Below are positions 261 through 26,393 of a DNA stretch of 64,000 bases, piece after piece. The notes beneath the pieces are model-generated. The model did not search any database and was not told the origin of the DNA. It was given only the letters and a program-made list of their open reading frames with translations. The first letter of the stretch is position 1; each line of letters opens with the position of its first letter. Position numbers and translations under genes: made by a program. Source of the DNA: Brachypterus glaber (Eukaryota; Arthropoda; Insecta; Coleoptera; Kateretidae); the NCBI GenBank assembly GCA_958510825.1, contig OY294046.1, forward strand, positions 50,449,794-50,513,793. The letters run 5' to 3'.

Positions 261-498
261 AATAATATAATTAATAATGTCTATATTGCCTAATAAAGAA
301 TAGAATAATATATATAATATAATAGAATTACTTTAAAAAATTGGAAGTAGTTGTATATTTTTCGGAATCGGAATCATTATTTGTAGCTTTTAACAAGGAC
401 TTTCCATAAAGATCGCAATCAGATACCGATCACTGGTACTTTGTTAAATTATTTAAAATAGAAAATACCAAACAGCTGGGGCTATTTTACTGTTCCTA

Positions 499-3972: not shown

Positions 3973-4203
3973 ACACTGAAAAAATTATTTTTAGTGAAAC
4001 GTAAAGAAAATTGGTCTTTAAAATGACGTTTCCAATGATGCAATGCCTATTTAAATATGCTATGTAATATTTACATTTTCGTAAATTTAATTTAATATTT
4101 TATTATAGGAAACATTATTTTACAGAAAATAACGATATATCGAAAAATTTATTTCTTACGCCATATAAATTTACGTTTTGCGACAGGTTATTTAGTTCAG
4201 TGT
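3973..4203. mobile_element. MITE with CACTGAA termini
   Basis: Terminal CACTGAA at the left and TTCAGTG at the right, with subterminal AAACGTAAA and TTTACGTTTTG in inverted positions. A second MITE beginning with the same CACTGAA starts only 67 bases downstream. Confidence 0.55.
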
Positions 4204-4270
4204 GCATTCATAAGTGATGATTAATGGTTAAAATATGTCAGAACTGTATGAACATAATATCGGTTAATAA

Positions 4271-4891
4271 CACTGAACCACAAAAGAAAAATACTACTCA
4301 GACTAGACATGTCATTCCTAAAAAACTTCCGAAAATGATGTCCATATTCTCCCATCGAATTTTCTTGCTGCATTAGGTAAAAAGGCTCAAATTGCAATAT
4401 TTCGCAGTCTTCTTGAAGCTCTAGTATTTTTAAATCGTTAGACCTCTAAGGTGTCATATCATTCGAATCAGCTAATCGAGTTCTACCAGGGTGCCAACTT
4501 TCTTTTTTTTTTTTTTTTCGAAAAAAAATGTTTATATTTTCGATATTTGGCACACTGTTCTAATGTAAATAGCATATAATTCCAGAGGTGTAATATTTAA
4601 AGGCCGGAGCCTAAATATTCGAAAAACACGACTTTTCGGACGCCATTGGCGCCATTTTGCAAGAAAAGCATTATAGTTTTAAAGTATCATATATCCGATA
4701 CTAACGGCTTTAGCTACAAATTTATCTAGCATTTTTGATCAATTTCCCCCCCCCCCCCTTTTTTGGCCTTTTCACCCCCTGAACAAAAAAAATTGCCATT
4801 ATGGGAGAAAATGGACATCATTTTCGGATTGAGCAGGTCGAATTTTATTAGAGATATGTCTATTTTGAGTATTTTTCTTTGTAATTCACTG
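4271..4891. mobile_element. MITE, CACTGAA...TTCACTG, about 620 bp
   Basis: Ends are inverted: CACTGAACCACAAAAGAAAA on the left, and TTTTCTTTGTAATTCACTG on the right. A second inverted pair, CCGAAAATGATGTCCAT and ATGGACATCATTTTCGG, lies about 60 bases in. The interior is T-rich with a C10-type homopolymer run near 4746. A terminal TA target duplication is plausible but not clean. Confidence 0.7.
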
Positions 4892-6992: not shown

Positions 6993-7530
6993 GCCTAATT
7001 TCGGTTTGTTTCCCAATTTCGGACAGTAGTGTATCTGAGATACTATCTGCAGAGGTAAACGAAAACCTACTTTTATGTGAAGCCAAAAGTCAAATATCCG
7101 TCCTGTAATATGGTAACGGTAGAACCTCTCCCCGTTTAAATGGCAGCACAAATCGTTTAAATTGCAAATGGCAAAATTATGGCTCCTATAATAGTATTCA
7201 TAAAAAAATTCCTAATGATTAAATTCGAGATTAAATTACTTCTTATTTGCAGAACGAAATGTCAAGGAATAACAAAAAATATAAGCAATGAAATTCAGAT
7301 CTATTTTGAAAAAAAACTTCGGATATTCCCGAAATTAGTAACCCTTTTTCAAATGCACAAAAATGCGCAAAGTTTTTTTAAGCGTGTTTTTTGGAAAAAA
7401 TAAACTAATAAAATTGTTTCCATAAATCATGGTTTGTTATAAGTTGAAAGTGGTTATATAAAAAAAATGTCAAAAAGTAATACCGCCTATTAAATATTGG
7501 TAAAATTTTAAATGGTATCCGAAATTAGGC
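6993..7530. repeat. possible old inverted-repeat element
   Basis: GCCTAATTTCGG at the left is mirrored by CCGAAATTAGGC at the right end, with additional CCCAATTTCGG / CCGAAATTAGT inside. The arms are short and diverged, so this may be a decayed MITE or coincidence. Confidence 0.35.
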
Positions 7531-7947
7531 GACTTTAATTCCCATTAGGTATTTTTTTTTGTGGGTCGATGTTATTGATTAAATACTTTACTGTGGGTTT
7601 ATCTCCGATTTAACGGAACTAACTAGGAAAATTTATTACCACACGCACGCTGGTATAAATATATAATAATATAATGTATAAATATACCTAATAAATAAGC
7701 ATGCGCAGTGAGGTGACAATTTTTCTAGTTAATTTGGAGCTGCTCTAGTTGCTTTTTTTTTCGTGGACCCTAATTATGATTTTGATAAAATAGTGGCATC
7801 TATAGCCCTATAGAATTTGTAGAATATTTGACATTGGTTAATTCTGAACAACCCACCTTTCCTACAACCATAAAAGAAAAACGAAACAACGTTGTTGTTT
7901 TACTTAAAATTATACAATGCTTAATGGATTAATGTTTTTGAATATAG
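7531..7947. other. region just upstream of first visible NUFIP1 exon
   Basis: No initiator codon in frame with the downstream NUFIP1 exon occurs here. A stop (TAG at 7945-7947) directly precedes the exon in frame, and TTTTTGAATATAG reads as a splice acceptor. The NUFIP1 first exon must therefore lie further upstream or be a tiny exon I could not identify. Confidence 0.4.
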
Positions 7948-8509
7948 GGTGACACGACAGATGAAGATGGTATCTGCGCTGGTTGTGCAGAATGTGAAGA
8001 TTATGAATTTGAGGAAGAATCCGCTGAAAACTACGAAGAATGTCCTGAAAACTATGAAGAATATACTGAGGCTTATGAAGAATATGCTGAAAGCTGTGAA
8101 GAATATGCTGAAAATAACGCTTACTCGTACACTGAAGAAAATTACAACGAACATAACGCAGAAAATCCATCTTTTTCTTGTGAAACTTGCGATAGAGATT
8201 TTTACAATAAACAGTACTATGACAAACATATGTCAGAACATCGAGTTTGCAATATTGACGGTTGCCAGTTTACCGCTCACGCAAAAATCGTGGATAAGCA
8301 CATAGAAATGCAACACTGTACGGGGCTGTACGACAAAATAAGAAATATTAACACTCCCGAAGATATAGCCAAATGGAGGGAAGAGAGAAAGAAAAAGTAT
8401 CCGAATAAGGAAAATATTCTTAAACGATATGAGCAACAAGAAGAGAAATTGAAACGCGGGGCTACCATTAAGAAGAAAGATAACAAATTTGGAAAGGATA
8501 AATTTAGGT
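7948..8509 (+). CDS. NUFIP1: NUFIP1 internal exon: E/Y-rich stretch, zinc fingers, PEP-like motif
   Basis: Acceptor TTTTTGAATATAG precedes 7948. The frame opens GDTTDEDGICAGCAECEDY and continues through an E/Y-rich run and both zinc-binding motifs. The donor is most likely AGGT|GTAAGT at 8509/8510; an alternative GT three bases upstream (TTTAG|GTGTAA) would break the phase with the next exon. The E/Y run (YEECPENYEEY-type units of about 7-10 residues) is repetitive. Confidence 0.88.
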
Positions 8510-11500
8510 GTAAGTATTAAAATATTAAGTTTGTCATGAAAAAGCTGTGATAAAATTGTACGTCTGTCTGTCCATTTATATACAAGCTAAAGATTTAAAC
8601 TTTAACTAGATGCAACGTTGCAAGCACCCTGTAAAAACATCGGCACTATTGTACACTAGAGCCATCTAGTTTGCAAATTTTAAACTAGGTGTTTTGTTTG
8701 ATTTTAAATTCTGTATCTTTAAAACATTATATTCTAGCAAAAAACTGTATATAACATTTTTTATAGGGCTTAAAAAGAGATTTTATATAAAATATTTTTT
8801 TTTTGAAATCGGGTTATAAATATATGAGATATGCTAAAAAAACCTTTTACTGCTTTAAACGCCAATATCTAGAAAACAATGCGTTTTAGGACAGGGTTCC
8901 CACCAATCCTGGAAAACCTTGAAAACCTGGAAAACGCATGGAATTTAGATTCCCACCTGGAATACCTGGAATTTAACATGTTTTTCTTAAAAAACACGTT
9001 TTTTACCTGGAATTTTGTAATAGAACCTGGAATTTAACATACAAAAATATAATTTGTTTAAGAAAATACCCTTAGCACAAAAATTAAAGGATATAAAAAA
9101 ACATCCTAAATTTTTAGATGGTTTTAAAAGCCTGCAACTTGGCGAAAAATGGTCGTAGAGCAATGATAAAATAGTATATTACGCACCGAGTACGCGAACC
9201 TAGTTTTTTAGTACATGAGAGTGCTTTTTTCTTACGAGGTACAGCCGAGTAAACAAAGTACTTTTTTGTTTTTTTTTCAAACTCAAAGTATCCCACAGAA
9301 ACCCCCAAAGAAACCCTCAAACGTTCAAACCATATTTTTCATTGTGATCCGAATGATTGAAATTGTCACTTTTACTAAAAATCAGTTTTTCTTGTTTTTT
9401 TTGTTCATTTTTTGAAGATTTTTTTTCGAAAAAAAAAATTATTTTACAAAATTTACAATGCTACGAGGAACATCAATTACAATCAATTACCCCAAAATGA
9501 TTTTTTTTTTTTTTAAAAATCGAAAAAAAAAAATATATATTTTTTTTGTCACTTTAATATTATTATTATATACTAACACTATTTTACTATACCTGGAATT
9601 TTAATAATTTTTGCCTGGAAAATACCTGGAATTTGAATGTCAATTTTTGGTGGGATCCCTGTAGAACGTTGTTTATAACATTTTTTGACCAATTTAAAAT
9701 TATCTTTTATATAAGTGCTAAATTAACCAAATACAATAATAATTGCCTTAATTATAAACAAAAAACGCTAAAAATAGGAGTTTTACCCAAACAGACGCAA
9801 AAATTTTTTTTACTGATTTCGACTCAGAATGGTCTAAAACGTCGAGAAATGTGAAAAAAACGTGGTCAAAGATTTTGACTTTTCGGCGAAGATTTCAATA
9901 CATCGGCACTCTTAGTAGCACTAAGTGCATGAAGCTGAAAGTGGCAGACACTTCTAGCAGACGATTTTTTAAAATGTCAAAATATTGTCAAATTTTTTGT
10001 AGTATATGGGTAATTCCAAGCAAAAATATTTTTATTTATTATGTGTAATAAATGTATTTATAAGCTACAATGTTATAATTTATTTACAAAAGTCCAAACC
10101 AAACACCCCCTCCACATTCAACTGCAGGCTATTCTTCTTTAAGCATAGAAAAACCGGTGTTTTCTGTAATTAGCAACTTTTTGCCAATTTTCTACCAGAT
10201 TCCATTTCTGCAAATCATGCGCTTATTTTCCCGAAGATTCCTTACCAATCAGACTACCAAATGGCAGAAACACATTTTCCACATTCGACTGCAGGCTATC
10301 CTTCAGCGAGCAAAGAAAAACGCGTGTATACTGTATTTGGCTATTTTGTTACGTTTTCCACCACACATCCTAGTTGCAAAATGTCTGCTGGTACCCACGA
10401 AGATTACTTACCAATACGACCACCTTATGGTAAAATCAAATCTATTACATTCGACTGCAGGCTATCCTTCCGCGCGCTACGAAACCTCATGTATACTGGC
10501 TAGTTTTTGGCCGTTTTTCACCAGAAAACTCTCCTGCAAATCGTAAGCTTGTACACCAAAAGAATCTTTATCAATAGTACCACCATATGGTACAATCATA
10601 TCCTCCACTTTCGACTGCAGGCTATTCCTCCACAAACAAAGAAAATACGCGTTTTCGTCACGTAGCAAGTTTTTGTCTGTTTTCCACCAGAAATCCTTCT
10701 TGCAAATTGTCTGCTGATACCAACAAAGATTTCTTACCAACACGACCACCATATGATACAATCAAATATTTTACTTTCGACTGCAGGCTATCCCTCCGCG
10801 CGCAAAGAAAACTTATGTATACTGCACTTGGCTAGTTTTTGCCCGTTTCCCACCAGATAACTCTCCTGCAAATCGTAAGCTTGTACACTAAAAGAATCCT
10901 TATCAATATTACTACCATATGGTACAATCACATCCTCCAATTTCGACTGCTGGCTATTCCTCCTCAAACAAAGAAAAATATGTGTTTTTGCACATAGCAA
11001 GTTTTTGCCTGTTTTCCACCAGAAATCCTTCTTGCAAATTGTCTGCTGATACCAACAAATATTTCTTAGCAACACGACCACCATATGGTACAATCAAATA
11101 TTTCACTTTCGACTGCAGGCTATCCCTCCGCGCGCAAAGAAAACTTATGTATACTGCACTTGGCTAGTTTTTGCCCGTTTCCCACCAGATAACTCTCCTG
11201 CAAATGATAAGCTTGTACACCAAAATAATCCTTATCAATATTACTACTATATGGTACAATCACATCCTCCAATTTCGACTGCTGGCTATTCCTCCTCAAA
11301 CAAAGAAAAATATGTGTTTTTGCACATAGCAAGTTTTTGCCTGTTTTCCACCAGAAATCCTTCTTGCAAATTGTCTGCTGATACCAACAAATATTTCTTA
11401 GCAACACGACCACCATATGGTACAATCAAATATTTCACTTTCGACTGCAGGCTATCCCTCCGCGCGCAAAGAAAACTCATGTATACTGCACTTGGCTAGT

Positions 11501-14500
11501 TTTTGCCTGTTTTTCACCAGACAACTGTCCTGCAAATCATAAGCTTATACACAAAAAGAATCTTTATCAATAGTACTACCATATGGTACAATCACATCCT
11601 CCACTTTCACCTGCAGGCTATCCTTCCACGGGAAAAGAAAAACGCGGGTATAGTGCACTTGGCTATTTTGTTACGTTTTTCACCAGACATCCTTCTTGCA
11701 AATTTTCTGCTGATAGCTACGAAGATTACTTACCAATAGGCCCACCTTATGGTACAATCAAATATTTCACTTTCGACTGCAGGCTATCCCTCCTCAAAGA
11801 AAGAAAATACGCGTCTTCTGCACGTAGCAAGTTTTTGTCTGTTTTCCACCAGAAATCCTTCTTGCAAATTGTCTGCTGATACCAACAAAGATTTCTTACC
11901 AACACGACCACTATATGATACAATCAAATATTTTACTTTCGACTGCAGGCTATCCCTCCGCGCGCAAAGAAAACTTATGTATACTGCACTTGGCTAGTTT
12001 TTGCCCGTTTCCCACCAGATAACTCTCCTGCAAATCGTAAGCTTGTACACTAAAAGAATCCTTATCAATATTACTACCATATGGTACAATCACATCCTCC
12101 AATTTCGACTGCTGGCTATTCCTCCTCAAACAAAGAAAAATATGTGTTTTTGCACATAGCAAGTTTTTGCCTGTTTTCCACCAGAAATCCTTCTTGCAAA
12201 TTGTCTGCTGATACCAACAAATATTTCTTAGCAACACGACCACCATATGGTACAATCAAATATTTCACTTTCGACTGCAGGCTATCCCTCCGCGCGCAAA
12301 GAAAACTTATGTATACTGCACTTGGCTAGTTTTTGCCCGTTTCCCACCAGATAACTCTCCTGCAAATGATAAGCTTGTACACCAAAATAATCCTTATCAA
12401 TATTACTACTATATGGTACAATCACATCCTCCACTTTCGACTGCAGGCTATTTCTCCTCAAAGAAAGAAAATACGCGTTTTCTGCAGGTAGCAGGTTTTT
12501 GCCTGTTTTCCACCAGAAATCCTTCTTGCAAATTGTCTGCTGATACCAAAAAAGATTTCTAACCAACACGACCACCATATGGTACAATCAAATATTTTAC
12601 TTTCGACTGCAGGCTATCCCTCCGCGCGCAAAGAATACTTATGTATTAGTTTATATCATAGGTAGGCCATGATTACTTAAAATTAATAGAAATGATCTAA
12701 GTAATCCTAGAAAAATACATTTACGCTAAAAAAAACATTTATAACTCAGTTGCACCATTTTAAAGTTTTAGAAAATGGTTTTTGTTTAAAAACTCAATTT
12801 TTTTTAAATGGCACCATATTGGTAAAAAGTACCGCCTTTTAGGAATCTACCAATATCCTTTATTTTAATGTAGGGTAAATACAGCCGTTTTTATAAATTA
12901 AAATCAATGATAATTATCATATTTTTAATTATTGCGTGATTTTAGTTAACAAAGTTGGCTTTGACAAATAAAAAGACAAAATACTGCTTTCTGCTTTCTG
13001 TCAAATTTAGTGTTATTAATTTTTGAACGTTTTTGTAACATACATAATTTTGTTTATTAAAAATGGTACATTATACTAGAGACGAAAAAATTGACATGCT
13101 TTTAATTTATGGGGAGTGCAGGAAAATTCTGTACAAGCACAGTTACTTTACATTGAAAGATATCCGGAAAGGCAAGCCCCCTTGACAGCCTAAACTGCTT
13201 GACCGCTTATTAGAACCATTTTTAATTACAGATTACATAAAAAACCGAAACAAATCAACAAAATTTAACCTGACAGATAAAAATAAAGGCATCCTGTCTT
13301 TTTGGTTATCAAAGCCAGCTTTGTTAACTAATATCACACAATAATCAAAAATATGATTATTATCATTTATTTTAATTTATAAAACCGGCTGTATTTATCC
13401 TACATTAAAATAAAGGATATTGGTAGATTACAAAAAGGCGGTACTTTTTGAATGTAACAGTGTACCAATATGGTGCCATTTAAAAAAATTGAGTTTTTGA
13501 GCAAAAACCATTTTTGAAAACTTTAAAATGGTGCAACTGAGTTATAAATGTTTTTTTTTTAGCGTAAATGTATTTTTCTAGGATTACTTAGATCATTTCT
13601 AGTAATTTTAAGTAATCATGGCCTACCTATGATATAAACTAAAAATTAAATTAAAAAATACATTGACATCGTAAATGTCACTTTTTTGGTATCATTGTAT
13701 TCAGAATAAAGCGCAGAATTGAAATATGTAAAAATATATAGGGTGTCCCATTTAAAAATCAAAAGTTGATATCATTTCCGGTTAAACCGGAAGTGGCTGA
13801 AATGTACAGTTTATGTTAAAAGTTGACAATTTATGGCTATAAGAGACCCTCCAAATTTGAAATCTCTAACTTTTAAAATAAAGAAAAAAAGGGGGTGTAC
13901 CTTGGTCTTGTAACACCCGGTATGTGTACAAAAAATTAATGTCGTAAGTAAAAAACAAAACATTAAGTACAAAAAAAATTAAAAAAATAAAAAAAAAAAA
14001 AAATAAAAAAAAAAAAAAAAAAAATAAAGAAAAATTAATAAATAAAACAAAAAAAATATATTGAAATGAAAACAAGTCTTAATGACAATGGTTTCATTTA
14101 AAACAAACAGAAACAATAAATTGAATACCCAAATTGAAACACATATTTCACCTTATGTAATTCATTATTATGATTAAGGTGAGTTGTACTATTTTTTTTA
14201 CTTTTAATAATTTTCATTGAAAATTAAAAAAATAGTTTTATGTCGTGACATTTTTCCTTTCAGTATCATATAATAAACCTATGACAAATTACCATTAAAA
14301 AAGCTACATAAATAAAATCACCAATCTATTGCTTAAATTTTAGGTGATTATTTTCAACACTCAATATAATATATTATGATGGCAGTTTACTTAGAAACCC
14401 TCTACATTTTGAAGTCTATTTAAAATCATCAAACTCCATTTCAAGGTATAAACTATTTTTAACAAAATTAAATTGTAATTTAAATATTTATTGTAATAAT

Positions 14501-15505
14501 TAACATCTTTGTTCCCTTTTTAGATTCAAAATTATATGATGAAAGTTTCCAGAAATTATACCCATTTTTCTTTAGATGAATTTATGTTTTTCCTAAATTT
14601 ATTCCACCATTATATTTATATTAAAATTCATGGCTTTTTTCTCTTTGCACTATTTTTAAGATTTTTTTTTTATTATAAGTTATTGTTATTATTATCATTA
14701 TGTTAGTTCTACATACTAATAAACAGATTAAAATAAAATTGTTTTCTTTTTCATTTAATCTTAATGTCTTTAAATATTATAATTTAAAACTATTTTATTC
14801 ATTGTTTAAAAAAATTAAATTTTAGGAATTATAGATTATACAGGGTTATCAGTAACTGTCATGTCAAAATTTAAGAGGTGATTCCACATCCAAAAATATC
14901 TAAATAAGTTCTTCTAAAGGTTGGTACGGAAATAAGCCCTTATGGGGTTTCGGACCTTCGAAGATAGACATATTGAATGGGGAACAAAAAAAGCACCAAA
15001 AAAATATAATGGTTCAGGGTAATTTTTCATTTAAAACTTTTTAGTATTCTCCATCAAAACACTTAAATTTAATATTTAAGGACAAAATGTTACTTCCTCT
15101 TAATTGAATTTTTTTTGAAAACAGTTGCTCCTATATGACATTTTTTATGTAGGTATTTTTTACAATGAATCTATATTTAAAAAAAAAATCCAAAAAAATA
15201 CACATAAAAAAGTTTGGGGTAAAAATGTGTTAAGCCACACATTTTCTCCGTCTAGGCACGCCTATTGATAAATAAAAGAAATAAATTAGTATAAACTAAT
15301 TGCCCTTATTAATGCCAGTATACATGCAAAAGTTTTGCAGCAAAACCTCGTCGCTCTAGCTTAAAGGTTACCAGAGTTATCAACTCAAAACCTTATTTTT
15401 AGTATAGTTTTAAAGGGCCGTAGCTCCCTTAGGACTCATTTCCGAAACCAACCTTTATAGCATTTTTTGTGATACTTTAGGATGTAGAATCACCTCTTAA
15501 ATGTT

Positions 15506-15540
<35 letters not shown>

Positions 15541-18500
15541 TCATATTCCATCAATAGGGAGCCCGAAATTGCATGTTCGACCTGCGATACGAAGCCCACT
15601 ACCGACATACGAGGCCCGGTTTTGGGCTTCGAATTTTTTATAGTGTATATCGTTTTATTGGACCTTAAATATAGTAGAAGAAGAAGACTTGAAAAATTGC
15701 CCAGGGCTTCCTATTATTCTAATACCCATCAAAATATACGCGCCTGTGTTCACGGAAGTTGAACTAGATGGCGACACAGTAGAACTGTATGTTGCATGTA
15801 TTTTTATGTAGTTGTCATATGATATGAGTCCCTAAGATTTGGCAACGTTGTTGACTACTTCAACTTAAATTGTTCAGCACTGTAGTATTAATTGGCGCTA
15901 AATCTTTTGTGGTCATGTGCTTGTTAAAGAAGAAATGAATAGGTCTAAGAAGATATTAGAGCTTGCTTTAAAAGCTCAAGGTAAGTTAACGTAACATACC
16001 TAAATTCAATAAATAACTTTAAATATTTTCTATATTTCAAAGAGTTTTTATTGTAAGAAAAAAACTGTCTATCAAGTTCCGTTAACGGACTCTTGTGGGA
16101 TTCACAGTGGGAAATAACGATCTTTTCCTGCGGAACGGTAAAAAAAGAGTACTTTAAATTATCCGATCGGGCTGAAATTTTGTACGCTGACTTAAGGGAC
16201 CTTTCTGCACCCCATCATGAAATTTCAACCCCATCAAACAATATTTAAGGGTGGCTTCCCCCTTTAAAACAATTTTTTTTCAGCGGAACGGTAAAAAAAG
16301 AGTACTTTAAATTATCCGATCGGGCTGAAATTTTTTACAGCGACTTTAAGGACCTCCCTGCACCCCATTCTAAAATTTCAACCCCATCGGAAAATATTTA
16401 GGGTTGGTTTACGCCTCCGAAACGATTTTTTCTGCGGAATGGTAAAAAACGAATACTTTAAATTATCCGATCGGGCTGAAATTTTTTATGCTGACTTTAG
16501 GTACCACCCTGCACCCCATTCTAAAATTATAACCCGATCGGAAAATATTTAGGGTTGGTTTACGCCTCCGAAACGATGTTTTCTGTGGAATGGTAAAAAA
16601 CGAGTACTTTAAATTTTCTATGCTGACTTAAGAGAACTTCCTGCACCCCATCCTAAAATTTAAACCCCATCGGAAAATATTTAAGGGTGGCTTCCCCTTT
16701 GAAACATTTTTTTTCAGCGGAACGGTAAAAACAGAGAACTTTAAATTATCCGATTGGCCTGAAATTGTTTGTGGTGACTTTAGGGATCTTCCTGCAACCC
16801 ATTCTAAAATTTCAACCCCATCTGAAAATATTTAGGGTTGGTTTATGCCTGCAAAACGATTTTTTTCTGCGGAATGGTAAAAAACGAGTACTTTAAATTA
16901 TCCGATCGGGCTGAATTTTTTTATGCTAACTTTAAGTACCCCCCTGCACCCCATTCTAAAATTATAACCCGATCGGAAAATATTTAGGGTTGGTTTACGC
17001 CTCCGAAACGATGTTTTCTGCGGAATGGTAAAAAACGAGTACTTTAAATTATCCGATCGGACTGAAATTTTGTATGCTGACTTAAGAGACCTTCCTGCAC
17101 CCCATCCTAAAATTTGAACCCCATCGGACAATATTTAAGGGTGGCTTCCCCCTTTGAAACATTTGTTTTCAGCGGAACGGTAAAAAATAGAACTTTCAAT
17201 TATCCGATTGGGCTGAAAATTTTTGTGGTGACTTTAGGGACCTCCCTGCACCCTATCCTAAAATTTCAACCCCATCTGAAAATATTTAGGGTTGGTTTAC
17301 GCCTGCAAAACGATTTTTTTTTGCGGAATGGTAAAAAACGAGTACTTTAAATTATCTGATCGGGCTGAAATTATTTATGCTGACTTTAGGTACCACCCTG
17401 CACCCCATTCTAAAATCATAACCCGATCGGAAAATATTTAGGGTTGGTTTACGCCTCCGAAACGATGTTTTCTGCGGAATGGTAAAAAACGAGTACTTTA
17501 AATTATCAGATCGGACTAAAATTTTGTATGCTGACTTAAGAGACCTTCCTAAAATTTGAACCCCATCGGACAATATTTAAGGGTGGCTTCCCCCTTTGAA
17601 ACATTTTTTTTTTCAGCGGAACGGTAAAAAATAGAACTTTCAATTATCCGATTGGGCTGAAAATTTTTGTGGTGACTTTAGGGACCTCCCTGCACCCTAT
17701 CCTAAAATTTCAACCCCATCGGAAAATATTTAAGGTTGGTTTACGCCTGCGAAACGATTTTTTTCTGCGGAATGGTAAAAAACGAGAACTTTAAATTATC
17801 CGATCGGGCTGAAATTTTTTAGGGCGACTTTAGGGACCTCTCTGCACCCCATTCTAAAATTTCAACCCCATCAGAAAATATTTAGGGTTGGTTTACGCCT
17901 CCGAAACGATTTTTTCTGCGGAATGGTAAAAAACGAGTACTTTAAATTATCCGATCGGGCTGAAATTTTGTATGCTGACTTTACAGACCTTCCTGCATCC
18001 CATCCTAAAATTTTAACCCCATCGGAAAATTTTAACGGTGGCTTCCCCTTTGAAACATTTTTTTTTCAGCGGAACGGTTAAAAAAGAGAACTTAAAATTA
18101 TCCGATTGGCCTGAAATTGTTTGTCGTGACTTTAGGAATCTTCCTGCACCCCATTCTAAAATTTCAACCCCATCTGAAAATATTAAGGGTTGGTTTACTG
18201 CTGCAAAACGATTTTTTTCTGCGGAATGGTAAAAAACGAGTACTTTAAATTATCCGATCGGGCTGAAATTTTTTATGCTGACTTTAGGTACCACCCTGCA
18301 CCCCATTCTAAAATTATAACCCGATCGGAAAATATGTAGGGTTGGTTTACGCCTCCGAAACGATGTTTTCTGCGGAATGGTAAAAAACGAGTACTTTAAA
18401 TTATCCGATCGGACTGAAATTTTCTATGCTGACTTAAGAGACCTTCCTGCACCCCATCCTAAAATTTAAACCCCATCGGAAAATATTTAAGGGTGGCTTC

Positions 18501-21212
18501 CCCTTTGAAACATTTTTTTTCAGCGGAACGGTAAAAACAGAGAACTTTAAATTATCCGATTGGCCTGAAATTTTTTGTAGTGACTTTAGGGATCTTCCTG
18601 CAACCCATTCTAAAATTTCAACCCCATCTGAAAATATTTAGGGTTGGTTTACGCCTGCAAAACGATTTTTTTCTGCGGAATGGTAAAAAACGAGTACTTT
18701 AAATTATCCGATCGGGCTGAATTTTTTTATGCTAACTTCAAGTACCCCCCTGCACCCCATTCTAAAATTATAACCCGATCGGAAAATATTTAGGGTTGGT
18801 TTACGCCTCCGAAACGATGTTTTCTGCGGAATGGTAAAAAACGAGTACTTTAAATTATCCGATCAGACTGAAATTTTGTATGCTGACTCAAGAGACCTTC
18901 CTGCACCCCATCCTAAAATTTGAACCCCATCGGACAATATTTAAGGCTGGCTTCCCCCTTTGAAACATTTTTTTTCAGCGGAACGGTAAAAAATAGAACT
19001 TTCAATTATCCGATTGGGCTGAAAATTTGTGGTGACTTTAGGGACCTCCCTGCACCCCATCCTAAAATTTCAACCCCATCGGAAAATATTTAGGGTTGGT
19101 TTACACCTGCGAAACGATTTTTTTCTGCGGAATGGTAAAAAACGAGAACTTTAAATTATCCGATCGGGCTGAAATTTTTTACGGCGACTTTAGGGACCTC
19201 CCTGCACCCCATTTTAAAATTTTAACCCCATCGGAAAATATTTAGGGTTGGTTTACGCCTCCGAAACGATTTTTTCTGCGGAATTGTAAAAAACGAGTAC
19301 TTTAAATTATCCGATCGGGCTGAAATTTTGTATGCTGACTTTGCAGACCTTCCTGCACCCCATCCTAAAATTTTAACCCCATCGGACAATATTTAACGGT
19401 GGCTTCCCCCTTTGAACCATTTTTTTTTTCAGCGGAACGGTAAAAAAAGAGAACTTTAAATTATTCGATTGGGCTGAAATTTTTTGTGGTGACTTTAGGG
19501 ATCTCCCTGCACCCCATTCTAAAATTTCATTCCCATATGAAAATATTTAGGGTTGGTTTACGCCTACGAAACGATTTTTTTCTGCGGAATGGTAAAAAAA
19601 CGAGTACTTTAAATTATCAGATCGGGCTGAAATATTGTATGCTGACTTTAGGTACCACCCTGCACCCCATTCTAAAATTATAACCCGATCGGAAAATATT
19701 TTAAGTTGATTTACGCCTGTGAAATGATTTTTTCCTGCGGAAGGGTAAAAAAAGAGTACTTTTAATTATCCGATCAGTCTAAAATTTTGTACGCTGACTT
19801 TAGGCACCTTCTTGCACCCGATCCTAAAATTATAACCCGATCAGAAAATATTTAGGGTTGGTTTACGCCTGCGAAACGATTTTTATCTGCGGAATGAAAC
19901 AAAACGAGTACTTTAAATTTTCCAATCGAGCTGAAATTTTTTATGCTGACCTAAAGGACTTTCCTGCACCCCATCCTAAAATTTCAACCCCATTGGAAAA
20001 TATTTAGGGTTGGTTTACGCCTCCGAAACTTTTTTTTCTGTGGAATAGTAAAAAACGAGTACTTGAAATTATCCGATCGGTATAAAATTTTTTATGCTGA
20101 CTTAAGGGACCTTTCTGCATCCCATCATAAAATTTAAACCCCATCGAACAATATTCAAGGGTGACTTCCCCCTTTGAAACAATTTTTTTCAGCGGAACGG
20201 TAAAAAAAGAGTACTTTAAATTATCGGGCTGAAATTTTGTATGCTGACTTAAGGCACCTTCCTGCACCCCATCCCAAAATTATAACCTGATCGAAAAATA
20301 TTTAGGGTTGGTTTACGCCTGCGAAACGATTTTTTTCTGCGGAATGGTGAAAAACGATTACTTTAAATTATCCGATAGGGCTGAAATTTTGTATGCTGAC
20401 TTTATAGACCTCCCTGCACCCCATTCTAAAATTTCAACTCTATCGGAAAATTTTTAGGGTTGGTTTACGCCTGTGAAATAATTTTTTCCTGCAGAACGGT
20501 AAAAAAGAGTACTTTGAATTATCCGATCGGGCTGAATTTTTTTACAGCGACTTTAGGGACCTCCCTGCACCCCATTTTAAAATTTTAACCCCATCGGAAA
20601 ATATTTAGGGTTGGTTTACGTCTGCGAAACGATTTTTTTCTGCGGAATGGTAAAAAACGAGAACTTTAAATTATCCGATCGGGCTGAAATTTTGTATGCT
20701 GACTTAAGAGACCTTCCCGCACCCCATCCTAAAATTTGAACCCCATCGGACAATATTTAATGGTGGCTTCCCCCTTTGAAACATTTTTCTAAATAAACGT
20801 TAACCTTATTTATTCCAAATTATGTTGATATTTTTTTACACCAGACCAAAACATCACTTTTTTAATAAAAAACAAAATAGTTTCATTACATTTTAAACAT
20901 TTTAAATATTAAAAATAAAAACTACTTTTATAACAATATTATTCATTTATCATTAAAAAACAAGCGTTAAACTTTCATACAAAGACAACTTAAATAATTA
21001 TTATATCGAATTTATAAGTAGGAAATATTGGCAACATCGCAGGGCTTCAAATAACTGTGAAAAATCAAAAAAATATGCATTTGGGCTTGCTATGACCGGA
21101 AAATATAATAGGGACTCGTATTAGCGTTACACATATATCTTTTTTCCTTGCCCCTAAACCCGGGCTTCGAATCACCTATGCTATGTATCGGGCCTCCTAT
21201 TGATAGTTCTAC

Positions 21213-21259
<47 letters not shown>

Positions 21260-24200
21260 ATTTTTAATTTAATTTAATTTTTCATTTGAAAGTCACGTAA
21301 TATTTTCTTTTTACATTTCAATTTACTCCATTAAAAATATATATTAAACTCGATTTAAAAAATTGAATTAAAATAAGCAAAAAATAAAAAAATAAATAAA
21401 AAAATACCATGTAATTTTCTTTGCCCACGGCGGAAAACGATGTGCTGTACCATATAGTACTCATATGAATAAAGGTTGGTTTTATCAGCAAATGATTTGC
21501 AAAAAGGGATTTGGTACGAAAACGGAATAAACTAGCTAAGCGTATTAGTTGCGTTTTTCTTTGTCTGCGGAGAAATAGACCGCAGTTGAATGTGAGATAT
21601 TTTTTTGTACTATAAGATAGTCTGATTCAAAAGAATTCTTTTGGTGTATAAGCAGTTGTTTGCAAAAAGAACGTCTGGTGAAAATCGGGCAAAAACTAGC
21701 CAAGTACGCGTTTTTCTTTACCCTCAAGGGGATAGACATGAGTTTCCTTTGCCCGCGAAAGCATAGCCTGCAGTCGAAAGTGGAGGATGTGATTGTACCA
21801 TATGGTAGTGCTATTGATATGGATTCTTTTGTTGTACAAGCTTACGATTTGCAGGAGAGTTATCTGGTGGAAAATGGCCAAAAACTAGCCAAGTGCAGTA
21901 TACATGAGTTTTCTTTGCGCGCGGAGGGATAGCCTGCAGTCGAAAGTGAAATATTTGATTGTACCATATGGTGGTCGTGTTGGTAAGAAATCCTCGTGGG
22001 TATCAGCAGACAATTTGCAACAAGGATGTCTGGCGGAAAACAGGCAAAAACTTGCCATGTGCAGAAAACACATGTTTTTCTTTGTTTGAGGAGGAATAGC
22101 CTGCAGTCGAAAGTGGAGGATATCATTGTACCATATGGTAGTACTATTGATAAGGATTCTTTTGGTGCACAAGCTTACGACTTGCAGGAGAGTTATCTGG
22201 TGGGAAACGGGCAAAAACTAGCCAAGTGCAGTATACATGAGTTTTCTTTGAGCGCGGAGGGATAGCCTGCAGTCGAAAGTAAAATATTTGATTATACCAT
22301 ATGGTGGTCTTGTTGGTAAGAAATCTTTGTTGGTATCAGCAGACAATTTGCAAGAAGGATTTCTGGTGGAAAACAGGCAAAAACTTGCTACGTGCAGAAA
22401 ACGCGTATTTTCTTTGTTTGAGGAGGAATAGCCTGCAGTCGAAAGTGGAGGATGTGATTGTACCATATGGTAGTAATATTGATAAGGATTCTTTTGGTGA
22501 ACAAGCTTACGATTTGCAGGAGATTTATCTGGTGGAAAACGGCCAAAAACTAGCCAAGTGTAGTACACGTGAGTTTTCTTTGCGCGCGGAGGGATAGCCT
22601 GCAGTCGAAAGTAAAATATTTGATTGTACCATATGGTGGTCGTGTTGGTTAGAAATCTTTGTTGGTATCAGCAGACAATTTGCAAGAAGGATTTCTGGTG
22701 GAAAACAGGCATAAACTTGCTACGTGCAGAAGACGCGTATTTTCTTTCTTTGAGGAGGAATAGCCTGCAGTCGAAAGTTGAGGATGTGATTGTACCATAT
22801 GGTAGTGCTATTGATAAGGATTCTTTTGGTGTACAAGCTTACGATTTGCAGGAGAGTTATCTGGTGGAAAACGGCCAAAAACTAGCCAAGTGCAGTATAC
22901 ATGAGTTTTCTTTGCGCGCGGAGGGATAGCCTGCAGTCGAAAGTGAAATATTTGATTGTACCATATGGTGGTCGTGTTGCTAAGAAATCTTTGTTGGTAT
23001 CAGCAGACAATTTGCAAGAAGGATTTCTGGTGGAAAACAGGCAAAAACTTGCTATGTGCAAAAACACATATTTTTCTTTGTTTGAGGAGGAATAGCCAGC
23101 AGTCGAAAGTGGAGGATGTGATTGTACCATATGGTAGTAATATTGATAAAGATTCTTTTGGTGTACAATCTTACGATTTGCAGGAGAGTTATCTGGTGGA
23201 AAACGGCCAAAAACTAGCCAAGTGCGGTATACATGAGTTTTCTTTGCGCGCGGACGGATAGCCTGCAGTCGAAAGTAATGGATTTGATTGTTCTATATGG
23301 TGGTCGTATTGGTAACTAATCTTCGTGGGTATCAGCAGACAATTTGCAAGAAGGATTTCTGGTGGAAAACTGGCAAAAACTTGCTACGTGCAGAAAACGC
23401 GTATTTACTTTGTTTGAGGAGGAATAGCCTGCAGTCGAAAGTGGAGGATTTGTTTGTACCGTATGGTAGTGCTATTGATAAGGATTCTTTTGGTGTATAA
23501 GCTTATGATTTGCAGGAGAGTTATTCGGTGGAAAACGGGCAAAAACTAGCCATGTGCAGTATACATAAGTATTCTTTGCGCGCGGAGGGGTAGCCTGCAG
23601 TCGAAAGTGAAATATTTGATTGTACCATATGGTGGTCGTGTTGGTAAGAAATCCTCGTGGGTATCAGCAGACAATTTGCAACAAGGATGTCTGGCGGAAA
23701 ACAGGCAAAAACTTGCCATGTGCAAAAAGTCCAAACACATGTTTTTCTTTGTTTGAGGAGGAATAGCCTGCAGTCGAAAGTGGAGGATATGATTGTACCA
23801 TATGGTAGTACTATTGATAAGGATTCTTTTGGTGCACAAGCTTACGATTTGCAGGAGAGTTATCTGGTGGGAAATGGGCAAAAACTAGCCAAGTGCAGTA
23901 TACATGAGTTTTCTTTGAGCGCGGAGGGATAGCCTGCAGTCGAAAGTAAAATATTTGATTATACCATATGGTGGTCTTGTTGGTAAGAAATCTTTGTTGG
24001 TATCAGCAGACAATTTGCAAGAAGGATTTCTGGTGGAAAACAGGCAAAAACTTGCTACGTGCAGAAAACGCGTATTTTCTTTGTTTGAGGAGGAATAGCC
24101 TGCAGTCGAAAGTGGAGGATGTGATTGTACCATATGGTAGTGCTATTGATAAGGATTCTTTTGGTGTACAAGCTTACGATTTGCAGGAGAGTTATCTGGT

Positions 24201-26393
24201 GGAAAACGGCCAAAAACTAGCCAAGTGCAGTACACGTGAGTTTTCTTTGCGCGCGGAGGGATAGCCTGCAGTCGAAAGTAAAATATTTGATTGTACCATA
24301 TGGTGGTCGTGTTGGTTAGAAATCTTTGTTGGTATCAGCAGACAATTTGCAAGAAGGATTTCTGGTGGAAAACAGGCAAAAACTTGCTACGTGCAGAAGA
24401 CGCGTATTTTCTTTCTTTGAGGAGGGATAGCCTGCAGTCGAAAGTAAAATATTTGATTGTACCATAAGGTGGGCCTATTGGTAAGTAATCTTCGTAGCTA
24501 TCAGCAGAAAATTTGCAAGAAGGATGTCTGGTGGAAAACGTAACAAAATAGCCAAGTGCACTATACCCGCGTTTTTCTTTTCCCGTGGAAGGATAGCCTG
24601 CAGTTGAAAGTGGAGGATGTGATTGTACCATATGGTAGTACTATTGATAGATTCTTTTTGTGTATAAGCTTATGATTTGCAGGACAGTTGTCTGGTGAAA
24701 AACAGGCAAAAACTAGCCAAGTGCAGTATACATGAGTTTTCTTTGCGCGCGGAGGGATAGCCTGCAGTCGAAAGTGAAATATTTTATTGTACCATATGAT
24801 AGTCGTATTGGTAAGTAATCTTCGTGGGTATCGTCAGACAATTTGCAGGAAGGATTTCTGGTGGCAAACACGGAAAAACTTGCTATGTGCAGAAAACGCG
24901 TATTTACGTAGTAGGGCTAAAAATTAATATTTTTGTCCATTAAAGTGTACCCATATATTAACATAAGTGCAGTATTATCCCTTAATTTGTCCTTTAATTA
25001 ATAAATTAAGCTTAAATAAAATAAAAATACAGAAATAAAATATTTTTATTAGGAATTACCCATATAATCACATTTTGACATTTTAAAAAATCGTCTGCTA
25101 GAATCGTCTGCCAATTTCAGTGTCATACTAAGTGCCGATGTAATACGAATTTTTCATATAAAGGGGGAGCTGATTAGATTTTGGTATAAAGTTGAATTCA
25201 CAGCTATTTCAACTGACGTAATCATACATTAATAACTGAATACCGTCAAATTTTGAATTTTACCATGCAAATTTTCTCTTGTGGATGAAAATAGCAAAGT
25301 ACCAGAGTACCATGCAAAACAACGGTATTTAGGTGTTTTGTGATGACGTCAGCCAAAGTAGCTGTGAATTTAACACCAGAACAAAAGTTGAGTAAAACAG
25401 CCATCGTACTTTTTCAAATGCAAAAAATGAGAAAAAAACTGTGTTTAATAATTTTATAATTTTAACTCTTTTATTTTTGTTTCAGTATCTTTAGATAAAA
25501 GAAGAGCTGAGCCTCATCAGCGAAACGTAGCGCCAATTAAAACCAGAAAACGACAAAAAAAGCCTCAGAAAGCAAAATCAATGATTAATGAGAAAAGCGA
25601 CTGGAATGGTACCATGTTTCCTTTTAGAGGTACCAGCGAATTATTTGAGGAAATTAGAATAGAAGTCAGCGACTACGAAGATGACGAGTGGGAAAATCCC
25701 AAACCAGTAAAAGAACATTTGGAAAAACCAGCAAAAAATAACTATTGTGCTGGAATTAAACTGAACAACGCTTTGGGTGCTTTGATGGGTGCGTATGGCT
25801 CTGATGACGAATATGATGATATTTTGCCAGAATTTGAAGAAAAACCAGTTAAAAATGAAGACAAAACGGTTAAAATTGAGGATAAAATCGAAGAAAAAAT
25901 ACTAGATGATATTGAAATGGATGACGGAGAAAAACCTGAAGAAATAAAAATGGAAAAGATTAGAGAAGAAAATATAATAGTAAAGGAAGAAAAAATTGAG
26001 GAAAAACTGAAATTAGACAACCCATTTAAGATTGGTAATAAAGATGATGAAAAACCCGAAAAAAATAACACAAAGAAATTGACAGAAAAAAATATATCAG
26101 GAAAAGCAGAAAACTTTGAAGAAAAATCATTCGTAAGGCAAGAACATAGAAGAAAACGAAAACGTACCCGTCCTACACAAGCAAATCAAAATAAAAAATC
26201 AAAAATGTCTGCAGAAAAAAATAAATCAAAAATAATCGAAACAAAACAAACGGATAAATTCCCTCATAATAACTTCAGAAAGAGAAAAGTAACTTTGTTA
26301 GAAAAATTGTTAGATAGTGAAATTAGAAGGGAAAGAAATATTTTATTACAATGTGTCAAATATGTTATAGATAATAATTTTTTTAGTAATTAA
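7948..26393 (+). CDS. NUFIP1: NUFIP1 homologue (box C/D snoRNP assembly factor), 2 visible exons
   Basis: NUFIP1 (yeast Rsa1 counterpart) is a nuclear RNA-binding adaptor that helps the R2TP machinery load SNU13/15.5K and core proteins onto box C/D snoRNPs. Visible coding parts are 7948-8509 and 25486-26393; the phases fit (1 base plus 2 bases). In order: an E/Y-rich run; a C2H2 finger (C-x2-C-x12-H-x3-H); a second atypical C-x4-C-x11-H-x4-H finger; the family's PEP-like motif TPEDIAKWREERKKKYP; a basic linker; LGALMGAYGSDDEYDD; a long K/E-rich tract; and a C-terminus LLDSEIRRERNILLQCVKYV, where family members bind ZNHIT3. The start exon was not found: the first exon opens on an acceptor with a stop right before it. 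The two exons are 17 kb apart, and the intron is almost wholly transposon and satellite. Identification rests on two separate conserved motifs, one per exon. Confidence 0.9.
8510..8890. other. NUFIP1 intron, proximal segment
   Basis: Low-complexity AT-rich intron. TGTCTGTCCATT near 8568 recalls other CTGTCTG-bearing repeats in the window. A CATCGGCACT decamer at 8639 matches the outer foldback terminus but lacks any partner. Confidence 0.4.
8891..9662. mobile_element. hAT-like MITE with ACAGGGTTCCCACC ends
   Basis: Left end ACAGGGTTCCCACCAA; right end TTGGTGGGATCCCTGT, an inverted repeat of about 16 bases. Repeated CCTGGAATTT motifs lie subterminally on both sides. CAGGG...TCCCACC termini are typical of hAT-superfamily MITEs in insects, but I see no clean 8-bp target duplication. 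The centre is A/T homopolymer-rich and non-coding. Confidence 0.65.
9663..9900. other. NUFIP1 intron between hAT-like MITE and foldback
   Basis: AT-rich, non-coding by inspection. The TA at 9899-9900 is the left target dinucleotide of the outer element. Confidence 0.4.
9901..10085 (+). repeat. left terminal module of the foldback
   Basis: Non-satellite end sequence, inverted relative to 24905-25140. Best conserved over the first 120 bases; the A/T-rich remainder diverges before the satellite begins near 10086. Confidence 0.7.
10086..12646 (+). repeat. satellite 1, left array: 166-bp monomers, dimeric higher order
   Basis: Sixteen CTGCAGG/CTGCTGG anchors occur between 10121 and 12607, a mean spacing of about 166 bp. 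Two monomer types alternate in the better-preserved part: one carrying CCCTCCGCGCGCAAAGAAAA, the other TTCCTCCTCAAACAAAGAAA, giving a 332-bp higher-order unit. Nearly every monomer has ACCATATGGT (NdeI site) and most have CTGCAG (PstI site). The outermost three monomers are the most diverged. ORFs of 65-130 codons in this block are fortuitous. Confidence 0.9.
12649..13639. mobile_element. 1-kb TIR transposon remnant inserted in satellite 1
   Basis: Perfectly mirrored ends GTTTATATCATAGGTAGGCC / GGCCTACCTATGATATAAAC with TA on each side. The inverted arms extend about 345 bp each (12649-12995 and 13293-13639), leaving about 300 bp of interior. The interior carries the remnant of a DUF4817 helix-turn-helix ORF. 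It interrupts a satellite monomer, so it is younger than the array. Confidence 0.85.
13063..13190 (+). pseudogene. DUF4817 transposon-protein remnant, frameshifted
   Basis: The frame opens at an ATG and reads MVHYTRDEKIDMLLIYGECR, the conserved start of the DUF4817 helix-turn-helix domain found in insect transposon proteins. After about 22 codons the match continues in another frame (ERYPERQAPLTA), so a single-base indel lies near 13123-13130, followed by stops. Only the N-terminal domain is left; no catalytic domain is present, so the element cannot move by itself. Confidence 0.75.
13640..14860. other. AT-rich interior of foldback, no gene
   Basis: 13736-13935 holds fragments resembling MITE ends (TATAGGGTGTCCCATTT and TTGTAACACCCGGTATG). 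13960-14065 is an A-rich tract. 14075-14860 is low-complexity A/T DNA with no ORF. Confidence 0.45.
14861..15510. mobile_element. 650-bp hairpin element
   Basis: TTTAAGAGGTGATTCCACATCC at the left mirrors GGATGTAGAATCACCTCTTAA at the right. Subterminal TTATGGGGTTTCGGA and GGGCCGTAGCTCCCTTA continue the arms. The subterminal core (TGATTCTACATC, GGGAGCTACG) recurs in the hairpin at 60.66-61.81 kb with different outer ends. Confidence 0.75.
15512..15540. repeat. (TA)n microsatellite, left
   Basis: Alternating TA directly outside the inner element. A matching (TA)n flanks its other end at 21213-21256. Confidence 0.9.
15935..15980 (+). CDS. candidate orphan first exon beside satellite 2
   Basis: An ATG in favourable context (AAGAAATGA) opens MNRSKKILELALKAQ and runs straight into CAAG|GTAAGT, a strong splice donor at 15980/15981. 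No partner exon is recognisable downstream, where satellite 2 starts 130 bases later. Short, basic-amphipathic N-termini of this kind occur on multi-copy insect transposon genes. It could be the start of the inner element's lost gene, or chance. I assign no function. Confidence 0.3.
16110..20790 (+). repeat. satellite 2: ~151-bp monomers in 453-bp trimeric higher-order repeat
   Basis: About 31 head-to-tail monomers with anchors GCGGAATGGTAAAAAACGAG and TATCCGATCGGGCTGAAAT. The variant CTTCCCC(C)TTTGAAAC recurs at 16691, 17144, 17587, 18042, 18497, 18951 and 19402, spacings 443-455 bp, so every third monomer is of that type. Regularity breaks down after 19.4 kb. Each monomer holds two CCGATCGG palindromes in inverted context (ATTATCCGATCGGG and CCCGATCGGAAAAT). 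ORFs of 60-90 codons in the block are shadows. Confidence 0.9.
20791..21206. other. right unique part of inner element
   Basis: AT-rich sequence ending in CGGGCTTCGAATCACCTATG and the mirrored terminus. No ORF or splice signal stands out on either strand. Confidence 0.4.
21213..21256. repeat. (TA)n microsatellite, right
   Basis: Uninterrupted alternating TA adjoining the right end of the inner element, followed by TTTAATTT-type low complexity to about 21415. Confidence 0.9.
21420..24904 (-). repeat. satellite 1, right array (inverted)
   Basis: About 19 clear anchors (GCCTGCAGTCGAAAGT) from 21768 to 24761, mean spacing about 166 bp, plus two degenerate monomers at the inner edge. Orientation is opposite to the left array, and monomers from the two arms look nearly identical in reverse complement over most of their length. 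The same two monomer types alternate (GCGCGCGGAGGGATAGCC and TTTGAGGAGGAATAGCC). Blocks such as 21.93-22.60 and 23.60-24.26 kb are near copies, so local segmental duplication has occurred. Confidence 0.9.
24905..25140 (-). repeat. right terminal module of the foldback
   Basis: Reverse-complement partner of 9901-10085, conserved mainly over 25020-25140 (GGAATTACCCATATAATCAC, TCGTCTGCTAGAATCGTCTG). It ends AGTGCCGATG, then TA. The stretch nearer the array has no counterpart in the left arm. Confidence 0.7.
25141..25485. other. NUFIP1 intron, distal segment
   Basis: AT-rich intron with a normal T-rich acceptor. CAGCTATTTCAACTGACGT and ACGTCAGCCAAAGTAGCTG form a loose dyad around 25201-25370, possibly another old MITE. 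Confidence 0.4.
25486..26393 (+). CDS. NUFIP1: NUFIP1 terminal exon: basic linker, acidic K/E tract, conserved C-terminus
   Basis: Acceptor TTTTTGTTTCAG ends at 25485, and two bases complete the split codon from the upstream exon. The exon reads SLDKRRAEPHQRN..., then the conserved LGALMGAYGSDDEYDD patch, a long K/E/I low-complexity region, a basic patch (RRKRKRTR) and the conserved C-terminal helix before TAA at 26391. The intron sequence next to the acceptor is ordinary. The ORF alone could start at the Met at 25581, but the open frame and phase match upstream argue that it is an internal coding boundary. Confidence 0.9.

What the first reader, a model, noticed from the sequence alone, without database searches (positions are those of the whole stretch)
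9901..25140. A 15-kb foldback element whose inverted arms are satellite arrays, buried in a NUFIP1 intron
Seen: mirrored CATCGGCACT termini, TA on both sides, about 120 bp of conserved non-satellite end sequence, then the same 166-bp satellite in opposite orientation on each arm. Shared non-satellite ends plus TA flanks argue for one mobile unit rather than two unrelated arrays. Known: Foldback and Galileo elements have inverted arms with tandem repeats, but I know of none with this terminus and TA target. Inference: a transposon that spreads satellite DNA, and a pre-mRNA able to form kilobases of double-stranded RNA.
Basis: partly seen in the sequence, partly recalled or inferred. Interest (0 to 1): 0.88.

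Follow-up and report, generated by a model that had tools for sequence, protein, structure and literature searches.

The report
Foldback transposon built of satellite arms
In an intron of the NUFIP1 gene, in what is probably a beetle genome, sits a 15-kb mobile element whose two mirror-image arms are satellite DNA; copies elsewhere in the genome, two of them identical to each other yet flanked by different 9-bp target duplications, are best explained by whole satellite arrays moving as one block, likely driven by a transposase supplied from elsewhere.

Summary
The element is window 9929-25126 (15,198 bp), flanked by the 9-bp duplication ACTAAGTGC. CATCGGCACT/TA is part of a palindromic pre-insertion site. 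Ends of 171 and 221 bp flank opposed arrays of a 166-bp satellite (332-bp dimer). The genome search scored 40 copies of each end; 22 of 28 loci examined have perfect 9-bp duplications. Copies on contigs C11 and C4 are 100% identical over 4,910 bp. A C1 locus matches the window element at 99.8-99.9%, across one assembly gap. Monomers within one arm are no more alike than monomers of different elements, while position-matched left-arm monomers are 98-100% identical in 4 of 8 elements compared: arrays are copied en bloc. 30 of 31 satellite clusters in the listed matches lie beside these ends. The middle holds a second, unrelated satellite carrier: 5,674 bp, 151-bp satellite, inserted in (TA)n, abundant. 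The element is apparently non-autonomous; no partner transposase was found. The anatomy fits foldback/Rehavkus-type MULEs (9-bp duplication; Rehavkus-1_TC of Tribolium carries a 164-bp satellite in inverted termini), but membership is unproven. The dsRNA idea is untested.

The parts
9920..9928 (.). Left copy of the 9-bp target site duplication, ACTAAGTGC
25127..25135 (.). Right copy of the 9-bp target site duplication, ACTAAGTGC
9929..10099 (+). Left end, 171 bp, non-satellite, starts ATGAAGCTGAAAGTGGCAGAC
   Evidence: 40 genomic copies scored; same first base at other copies; limits
24906..25126 (-). Right end, 221 bp, non-satellite, reads inward ATGACACTGAAATTGGCAGAC; shares a 32-bp identical block with the left end
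   Evidence: 40 genomic copies scored
10100..12646 (+). Left arm: 166-bp satellite array in 332-bp dimers, edge monomer order 1-3-2-4-2-4
21439..24905 (-). Right arm: same satellite in opposite orientation, edge monomer order 2-3-4-2-4
12646..13642 (.). Nested element with inverted repeats (394-column alignment, 87%) at the inner edge of the left arm
14861..15510 (.). Nested MITE-like unit with 99-bp inverted repeats (78%)
15540..21213 (+). Nested second satellite carrier, 5,674 bp, short inverted termini (CCATCAATAGGGAGCCCGA / CTATCAATAGGAGGCCCGA), inserted in (TA)n
   Evidence: same left boundary at 5 of 5 other loci sampled; right boundary identical at 3 of 5, one base changed at 2 of 5
16116..20788 (+). 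151-bp satellite array (454-bp higher-order unit) inside the second carrier
21353..21440 (.). Right remnant of the foldback element's middle; the same letters stand between the arms of the C2:78.05 Mb copy (L017)
9899..9919 (.). Left part of the palindromic target (TACATCGGCACTCTTAGTAGC); not part of the element
25136..25142 (.). Right part of the palindromic target (CGATGTA); not part of the element
8510..25485 (+). NUFIP1 intron that holds the element (donor GTAAGT at 8510, acceptor CAG ending at 25485; splice sites chosen by eye)

Best explanation
Window 9929-25126 is one copy of a multi-copy foldback transposon family, apparently non-autonomous, whose inverted arms are arrays of a 166-bp satellite; it has 9-bp target duplications and is likely moved as a block by a Mutator-like (MULE/Rehavkus-type) transposase encoded elsewhere. 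Shown: exact common ends, 9-bp duplications, many dispersed copies, identical copies with different flanks, and conserved monomer order along the left arms. Inferred: the transposase would bind the terminal block shared by both ends, cut out everything between them, and insert it into AT-rich DNA. Arrays would then grow or shrink by unequal exchange in steps of about 166 or 332 bp, and internal deletions would fuse the arms at several points, each fused form being re-amplified by transposition. The window copy kept a longer middle that collected nested elements, including a second satellite carrier, before the composite was duplicated to another site. Its effect on NUFIP1 RNA is untested.
For: Ends: 40 left-end and 40 right-end copies scored, of 94 and 96 candidates; 30 left ends pair with 29 right ends, spans 1.9-20.9 kb, median 4.9 kb. 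Duplications: 22 of 28 loci exact at 9 bp, 2 more within 2 mismatches; target AT-rich, GC 22% in the duplication against 34% in flanks, 24 sites. Recent block movement: the C11 and C4 copies are identical over 4,910 bp with different duplications. Window and C1 copies at 99.82% over 3.9 kb and 99.86% over 11.8 kb with different duplications; the C1 flank tested (200 and 1,505 bp) has no match to the window flanks beyond one of 25 bp. Arrays copied, not regrown: monomers of the same arm 93.2% alike, of other elements on the same side 93.3%; the first eight left-arm monomers of the window copy match those of L011, L021, L015 and L016 (4 of 8 elements compared) at 97.6-100% by position. Shared arm-junction forms at different sites: L015 with L021; L023, L024 with L028; L009 with L014. 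Satellite found at these elements: of 31 clusters in the listed part of 470 matches, 30 lie within 2.2 kb of a mapped end.
Against: No transposase was recognised in the interiors read, and many interiors were not read. The 18 MULE-domain (PF10551) matches in the genome all lie more than 100 kb from the mapped ends (coordinates compared by eye; unscored ends could not be compared), and the one fetched lacks these ends. PF20700 matches belong, as far as inspected, to an element with other ends. Of 28 loci, 2 fail the duplication test (C1:26.73 Mb beside an assembly gap; the C1:47.10 Mb cluster, where the nearer right end gives 7 of 9 bases) and 2 had no right end in the stretch read. By position L023 and L024 are clearly more diverged (90-99%), and L009 and L014 drop to 92-93% at positions 7-8. 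The C1 copy has a 200-N gap followed by a stretch with another left end and another flank, so its inner part may be mis-joined; the lack of differences from 14338 to 24445 could in part reflect assembly.
Confidence: 0.87

Rival explanations
1. The foldback family is mobilised by a transposase of another superfamily (P/Galileo-like, hAT, Merlin), and the foldback anatomy is convergent.
For: No partner transposase was found. Foldback anatomy is known to arise in different superfamilies (passages of PMC3169594 and PMC4079207).
Against: The duplication is 9 bp at 22 of 28 loci; Galileo copies have 7-bp duplications (passages of PMC3573991), hAT and P usually 8 (recalled). 9 bp is the length listed for Rehavkus and several MULE groups (passages of PMC6446971).
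Confidence: 0.15
2. The satellite arrays expanded in place at each site after insertion of a small element.
For: Arm lengths differ between elements, with gaps of 166, 332 and 1,328 bp among others.
Against: Monomers in one arm are no more alike than monomers of different elements, while position-matched monomers are 97.6-100% identical in 4 of 8 elements compared. Two 4.9-kb elements are fully identical at different sites.
Confidence: 0.04
3. The dispersed copies arose by segmental duplication or assembly duplication rather than transposition.
For: Some loci look duplicated or mis-joined (C1:69.63-69.64 Mb spacing of 9,701 bp; C1:55.26 Mb gap).
Against: Different flanks with matching 9-bp duplications at both ends at 22 of 28 loci.
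Confidence: 0.03
4. One reading: an element ending in CATCGGCACT that targets TA.
For: The window copy alone has CATCGGCACT next to TA on both sides.
Against: Other copies start 28 and 14 bp further in, and the 10-mer is in none of the 97 loci held other than the window's own two. The palindrome is strong at this site (0 of 200 shuffles reach its score) but 20 of the other 23 sites are reached by at least 28 of 200 shuffles.
Confidence: 0.01

Closest known systems
Rehavkus-1_TC (Tribolium castaneum), Rehavkus clade of MULE-like transposons
   Same: Inverted termini carry a satellite of about the same length (164 bp, TCsat23); beetle host; Rehavkus is listed with 9-bp duplications and a minisatellite (passages of PMC10218199 and PMC6446971).
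   Different: Rehavkus-1_TC is 9.5 kb with arrays of mostly 5 and 8 monomers. Rehavkus elements encode one transposase with a PHD finger; none was recognised here. Here the arms are often joined head to head with almost nothing between. Sequence relatedness could not be tested.
Tetris (Drosophila virilis)
   Same: Non-autonomous foldback element, about 220-bp tandem repeats in inverted arms, 8-10-bp duplications, assigned to Mutator by duplication size, autonomous partner unknown (passages of PMC4079207).
   Different: Three structurally complete copies were reported there, with inverted repeats up to 1,735 bp and satellite amplified outside the element. Here 30 left ends pair with 29 right ends, arms reach several kb, two copies are identical at different sites, and 30 of 31 listed satellite clusters lie at element ends.
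Galileo (Drosophila, P superfamily)
   Same: Long, internally repetitive inverted repeats with size variation (passages of PMC3573991).
   Different: 7-bp duplications; P-type transposase.
Tm1 (Meloidogyne), Mutator/foldback
   Same: Composite inverted repeats and 9-bp duplications (abstract and passages of PMC3169594).
   Different: Internal repeats of about 14 bp; an element encoding a Phantom-type MULE transposase is known.
Macro-dyad symmetric satellite arrays of Tribolium
   Same: Multi-kb satellite arrays in inverted pairs with conserved inversion points, in a beetle (abstract and passages of PMC13081366).
   Different: Those are megabase regions, likely (peri)centromeric, and the passages read do not tie them to a transposon. 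Here each dyad is a dispersed transposon with its own ends and target duplication.

Membership tests
Foldback-type transposon (structural class) | Long inverted arms made of tandem repeats | tested here: met
Foldback-type transposon (structural class) | Common ends with target duplications at dispersed sites | tested here: met
   22 of 28 loci exact
Rehavkus / MULE | 9-bp target site duplication | tested here: met
   feature as listed in PMC6446971
Rehavkus / MULE | Terminal inverted repeats of 26-400 bp | tested here: met
   109-column imperfect match (78%) between ends of 171 and 221 bp, with a 32-bp identical block
Rehavkus / MULE | Satellite or minisatellite near the ends | tested here: met
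Rehavkus / MULE | MULE-type transposase (with PHD finger in Rehavkus) encoded by an element with the same ends | tested here: inconclusive
   None recognised in the interiors read; 18 PF10551 matches, none within 100 kb of a mapped end; one fetched lacks the ends
Rehavkus / MULE | Sequence relatedness to Rehavkus-1_TC | not testable with these tools
   Repbase is not held
Galileo / P superfamily | 7-bp target site duplication | tested here: not met
   9 bp
Tc1/mariner-like (TA target) | TA duplication directly at the element ends | tested here: not met
Tetris | Sequence identity of ends or repeats | not tested
   Tetris sequence was not fetched; repeat length differs (about 220 against 166 bp)

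The most novel reading that the evidence does not exclude
In this genome two unrelated satellite DNAs are transposon cargo, one carrier nested in the other: the 166-bp satellite exists essentially only as arms of a recently active foldback transposon, and the 151-bp satellite is carried in constant form by a second, far more abundant element that inserts into (TA)n. Transposition, not local amplification, spreads both, and moving inverted satellite pairs could seed the macro-dyad satellite regions described in Tribolium.
Probability: 0.5. Interest if true: 0.75.

Novelty: new variant of a known kind. Interest (0 to 1): 0.6.

Why it matters
How satellite arrays spread through euchromatin is an open question, usually argued from partial similarity between satellites and transposons. 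Here the argument can be made base by base: exact ends, exact target duplications, identical copies at different sites, and arrays whose monomers correspond position by position between elements. It gives a ready system for timing satellite movement, for asking whether arms change length during or between moves, and for testing whether mobile inverted satellite pairs explain inverted satellite arrays elsewhere in beetles. A 15-kb element with kilobase inverted arms in the intron of a conserved gene is also a natural test of double-stranded RNA or small RNA effects.

Tried and rejected
CATCGGCACT as terminus: rejected after comparing copies. A palindrome preference of insertion: not supported; apart from the window site, 3 of 23 sites (L069, L075, L028) are reached by only 4-6 of 200 shuffles and the other 20 by 28 or more. 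PF20700 transposons as partner: rejected for the 8 of 13 matches whose surroundings were fetched (no strong match to our ends within 1.5 kb); two of them inspected have GGGGTCTACCC-type inverted ends next to TTAA. One PF10551 MULE (C17) as partner: rejected, no shared ends; the other 17 were not read. Satellite monomers as extra transposase sites: the end motif AGCAGACNATTT recurs (on the opposite strand) in 107 of 115 type-4 monomers, but 14 of 60 shuffles reach the same match score, so chance is not excluded. Middle of the window copy as a decayed transposase: longest non-satellite frames are under 100 aa and none was recognised by eye. The 12.7-kb C15 copy as autonomous: its extra length includes frames that look like a non-LTR retrotransposon (by eye). 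Frames beyond 200-N gaps in L010, L013 and L019 (retroelement-like, and in L013 a helix-turn-helix-like frame, by eye) cannot be assigned to the elements across the gaps and were not followed.

Paper searches used for novelty.

Full report
What was claimed.

What is there. Tandem repeat finding gives a 166-bp array at 10234-12635 (14.5 copies) and 21736-24892 (19.0 copies; 332-bp period at 89%); similarity searches put the arms at 10100-12646 and 21439-24905. Self-comparison shows them in opposite orientation, with registers of 2,557 bp at 81.9% and 1,348 bp at 93.8%. The flanking exons belong to NUFIP1: 7948-8517 carries the PF10453 motif and matches Diorhabda NUFIP1 residues 114-238; 25452-26390 matches residues 247-433 of the same protein. 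Splice sites chosen by eye give an intron of 8510-25485 (16,976 bp).

The true ends. A genome search with the left end gave 41 matches (40 of 94 candidates scored); leaving out the last, weak match, which is the other end, 35 of 40 begin at query base 28 or 29, not 1. The right end gave 41 matches (40 of 96 scored); again leaving out the weak cross-match, 35 of 40 begin at base 14 or 15. The shared ends are ATGAAGCTGAAAGTGGCAGAC (window 9929) and ATGACACTGAAATTGGCAGAC (window 25126, inward). Directly outside lie two copies of ACTAAGTGC.

Target duplications. I compared left and right flanks at 28 loci (holding 30 of the 40 left ends; the other 10 left ends were not tested). 22 have an exact 9-bp duplication, 2 have one or two mismatches (C1:38.30 and C15:32.28 Mb), 2 do not match (C1:26.73 Mb, next to an assembly gap; C1:47.10 Mb, a cluster that paired with its farther right end; with the nearer one 7 of 9 bases match), and 2 had no right end in the stretch read (C16:18.65 and C1:69.64 Mb). 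In 24 joined empty sites the duplicated 9-mer is AT-rich (GC 22% against 34% in flanks). The window target is an unusually good palindrome (0 of 200 shuffles reach its score); of the other 23 sites, 3 are reached by only 4-6 of 200 shuffles and 20 by 28 or more. CATCGGCACT is therefore target sequence of this one site.

Copies and block movement. 30 left ends pair with 29 right ends (both C1:55.26 Mb left ends fall to one right end), spans 1.9 to 20.9 kb, median 4.9 kb; 10 left and 11 right ends stayed unpaired, perhaps because only 40 of each were scored. The C11:8.62 Mb and C4:6.87 Mb elements are identical over 4,910 bp with no gap, and their duplications differ (AAAATTTAC, AAAATAAAC). On C1:55.24-55.26 Mb, an element with duplication ATTAAAAAA matches window element positions 1-3897 at 99.82% and 3412-15198 at 99.86%; of its flanks 200 and 1,505 bp were compared with the window flanks, with one 25-bp match. 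That locus has a 200-N gap followed by another left end with another flank, so part of the C1 scaffold may be mis-joined; I read it as at least one further copy of the 15-kb composite, not as a perfect one.

How the arrays travel. I cut 269 monomers from 24 arms of 12 elements, some arms incomplete in the stretch held. They fall into four types. All 12 left arms begin 1-3-2-4. Right arms begin 2-3-4 in L011, L012, L021, L015, L009, L014 and the window copy, 2-4-2-4 in L023, L024 and L028, 3-2 in L027; the outer right edge of L016 was not read. Within a type, monomers of the same arm are 93.2% alike and monomers of different elements on the same side 93.3%. Matched by position, the first eight left-arm monomers of the window copy are 97.6-100% identical to L011, L021, L015 and L016 (4 of 8 elements compared); L009 and L014 fall to 92-93% at positions 7-8, and L023 and L024 to 90-99% throughout. 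So arrays were inherited as blocks, with no sign of local homogenisation. Arms join head to head at several different points, and some junctions recur at different sites: L015 with L021, L023 and L024 with L028, L009 with L014, besides the identical L011/L012 pair. L017 keeps 85 bp between its arms, and window 21353-21440 occurs there letter for letter. Length differences between elements include 166, 332 and 1,328 bp, among others that are not multiples.

Where the satellite lives. A search with a 332-bp dimer returned 470 matches (34 of 71 candidates scored, only part of the matches listed). The listed ones, grouped by hand, form 31 clusters; 30 lie within 2.2 kb of a mapped end, and the last, at C1:69.63 Mb, repeats a nearby cluster at a spacing of 9,701 bp. 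The list favours the best matches, so distant stand-alone arrays are not excluded.

The second satellite carrier. Inside the window element lies 15540-21213, 5,674 bp, with a 151-bp satellite (454-bp higher-order unit). A 303-bp piece of it gave 357 first-look candidates, of which 40 were scored, and 585 matches; 40 listed matches are 100% identical over the piece (the window and the C1 foldback copy among them), and weaker matches sit at constant offsets from locus to locus, seen by eye in the list. At 5 of 5 other loci sampled the left boundary is the same base next to (TA)n; the right boundary is the same at 3 of 5 exactly and at the other 2 with one changed base; length was measured at those 3 loci and is 5,673-5,674 bp. 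Its class remains unassigned.

Mechanism. Shown: shared ends, duplications, dispersed and identical copies, block inheritance of arrays. Inferred: cut-and-paste by a transposase acting in trans. The two ends share a 32-bp identical block (TTCTAGCAGACGATTTTTTAAAATGTCAAAAT), a candidate binding site. No transposase frame for this family was recognised in the interiors read; frames of other elements lie beyond assembly gaps in L010, L013 and L019. 18 MULE-domain matches exist in the genome, none within 100 kb of a mapped end (compared by eye), and the one fetched has other surroundings. PF20700 matches, as far as inspected, are a different element family.

Comparison. [quoted passage not shown] PMC6446971 (passages) lists Rehavkus with 9-bp duplications, 26-400-bp inverted repeats, a PHD-finger transposase and a minisatellite. 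PMC4079207 (abstract and passages) describes Tetris, a foldback element with about 220-bp repeats and 8-10-bp duplications. The present family works like these and meets the structural features tested, but the transposase and sequence relatedness are open, so I do not file it as Rehavkus. Galileo is excluded by its 7-bp duplications (PMC3573991, passages). PMC13081366 (abstract and passages) states that macro-dyad satellite arrays had been documented only in Tribolium; the inverted satellite pairs here are a dispersed, mobile counterpart, and a link is only a hypothesis. Passages of PMC13359780, PMC12628747 and PMC11049206 were also seen and add background only.

Verdict. New variant of a known kind.

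Noticed in passing
window 15540-21213: A second satellite-carrying element (151-bp satellite) in (TA)n, in a very large family: 40 listed matches are 100% identical over 303 bp (357 candidates, 40 scored).
   Followed up: partly
G000 C1:69.63-69.64 Mb: Satellite matches repeat at a constant spacing of 9,701 bp, suggesting a tandem duplication or assembly repeat of a foldback copy.
   Followed up: no
L022 2821-2828 (C1:47.10 Mb): A left end and a right end of the family lie back to back only 6 bp apart inside a cluster of elements.
   Followed up: partly
window 8638: A further CATCGGCACT on the + strand, not next to TA and not part of the element.
   Followed up: no
L085: A foldback copy with exact duplication holds long frames that look like a non-LTR retrotransposon between its arms (by eye).
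   Followed up: no
L059, L060: PF20700 elements with inverted ends GGGGTCTACCC next to TTAA on both sides, which suggests a TTAA-type target.
   Followed up: no
L013, beyond its 200-N gap: A frame that looks like the helix-turn-helix part of another insect transposon (by eye).
   Followed up: no
window 38429-38802: A 191-bp unit tandemly duplicated at 98%.
   Followed up: no
window 35276-36191: A 119-aa frame occurs twice 556 bp apart with the same first part.
   Followed up: no
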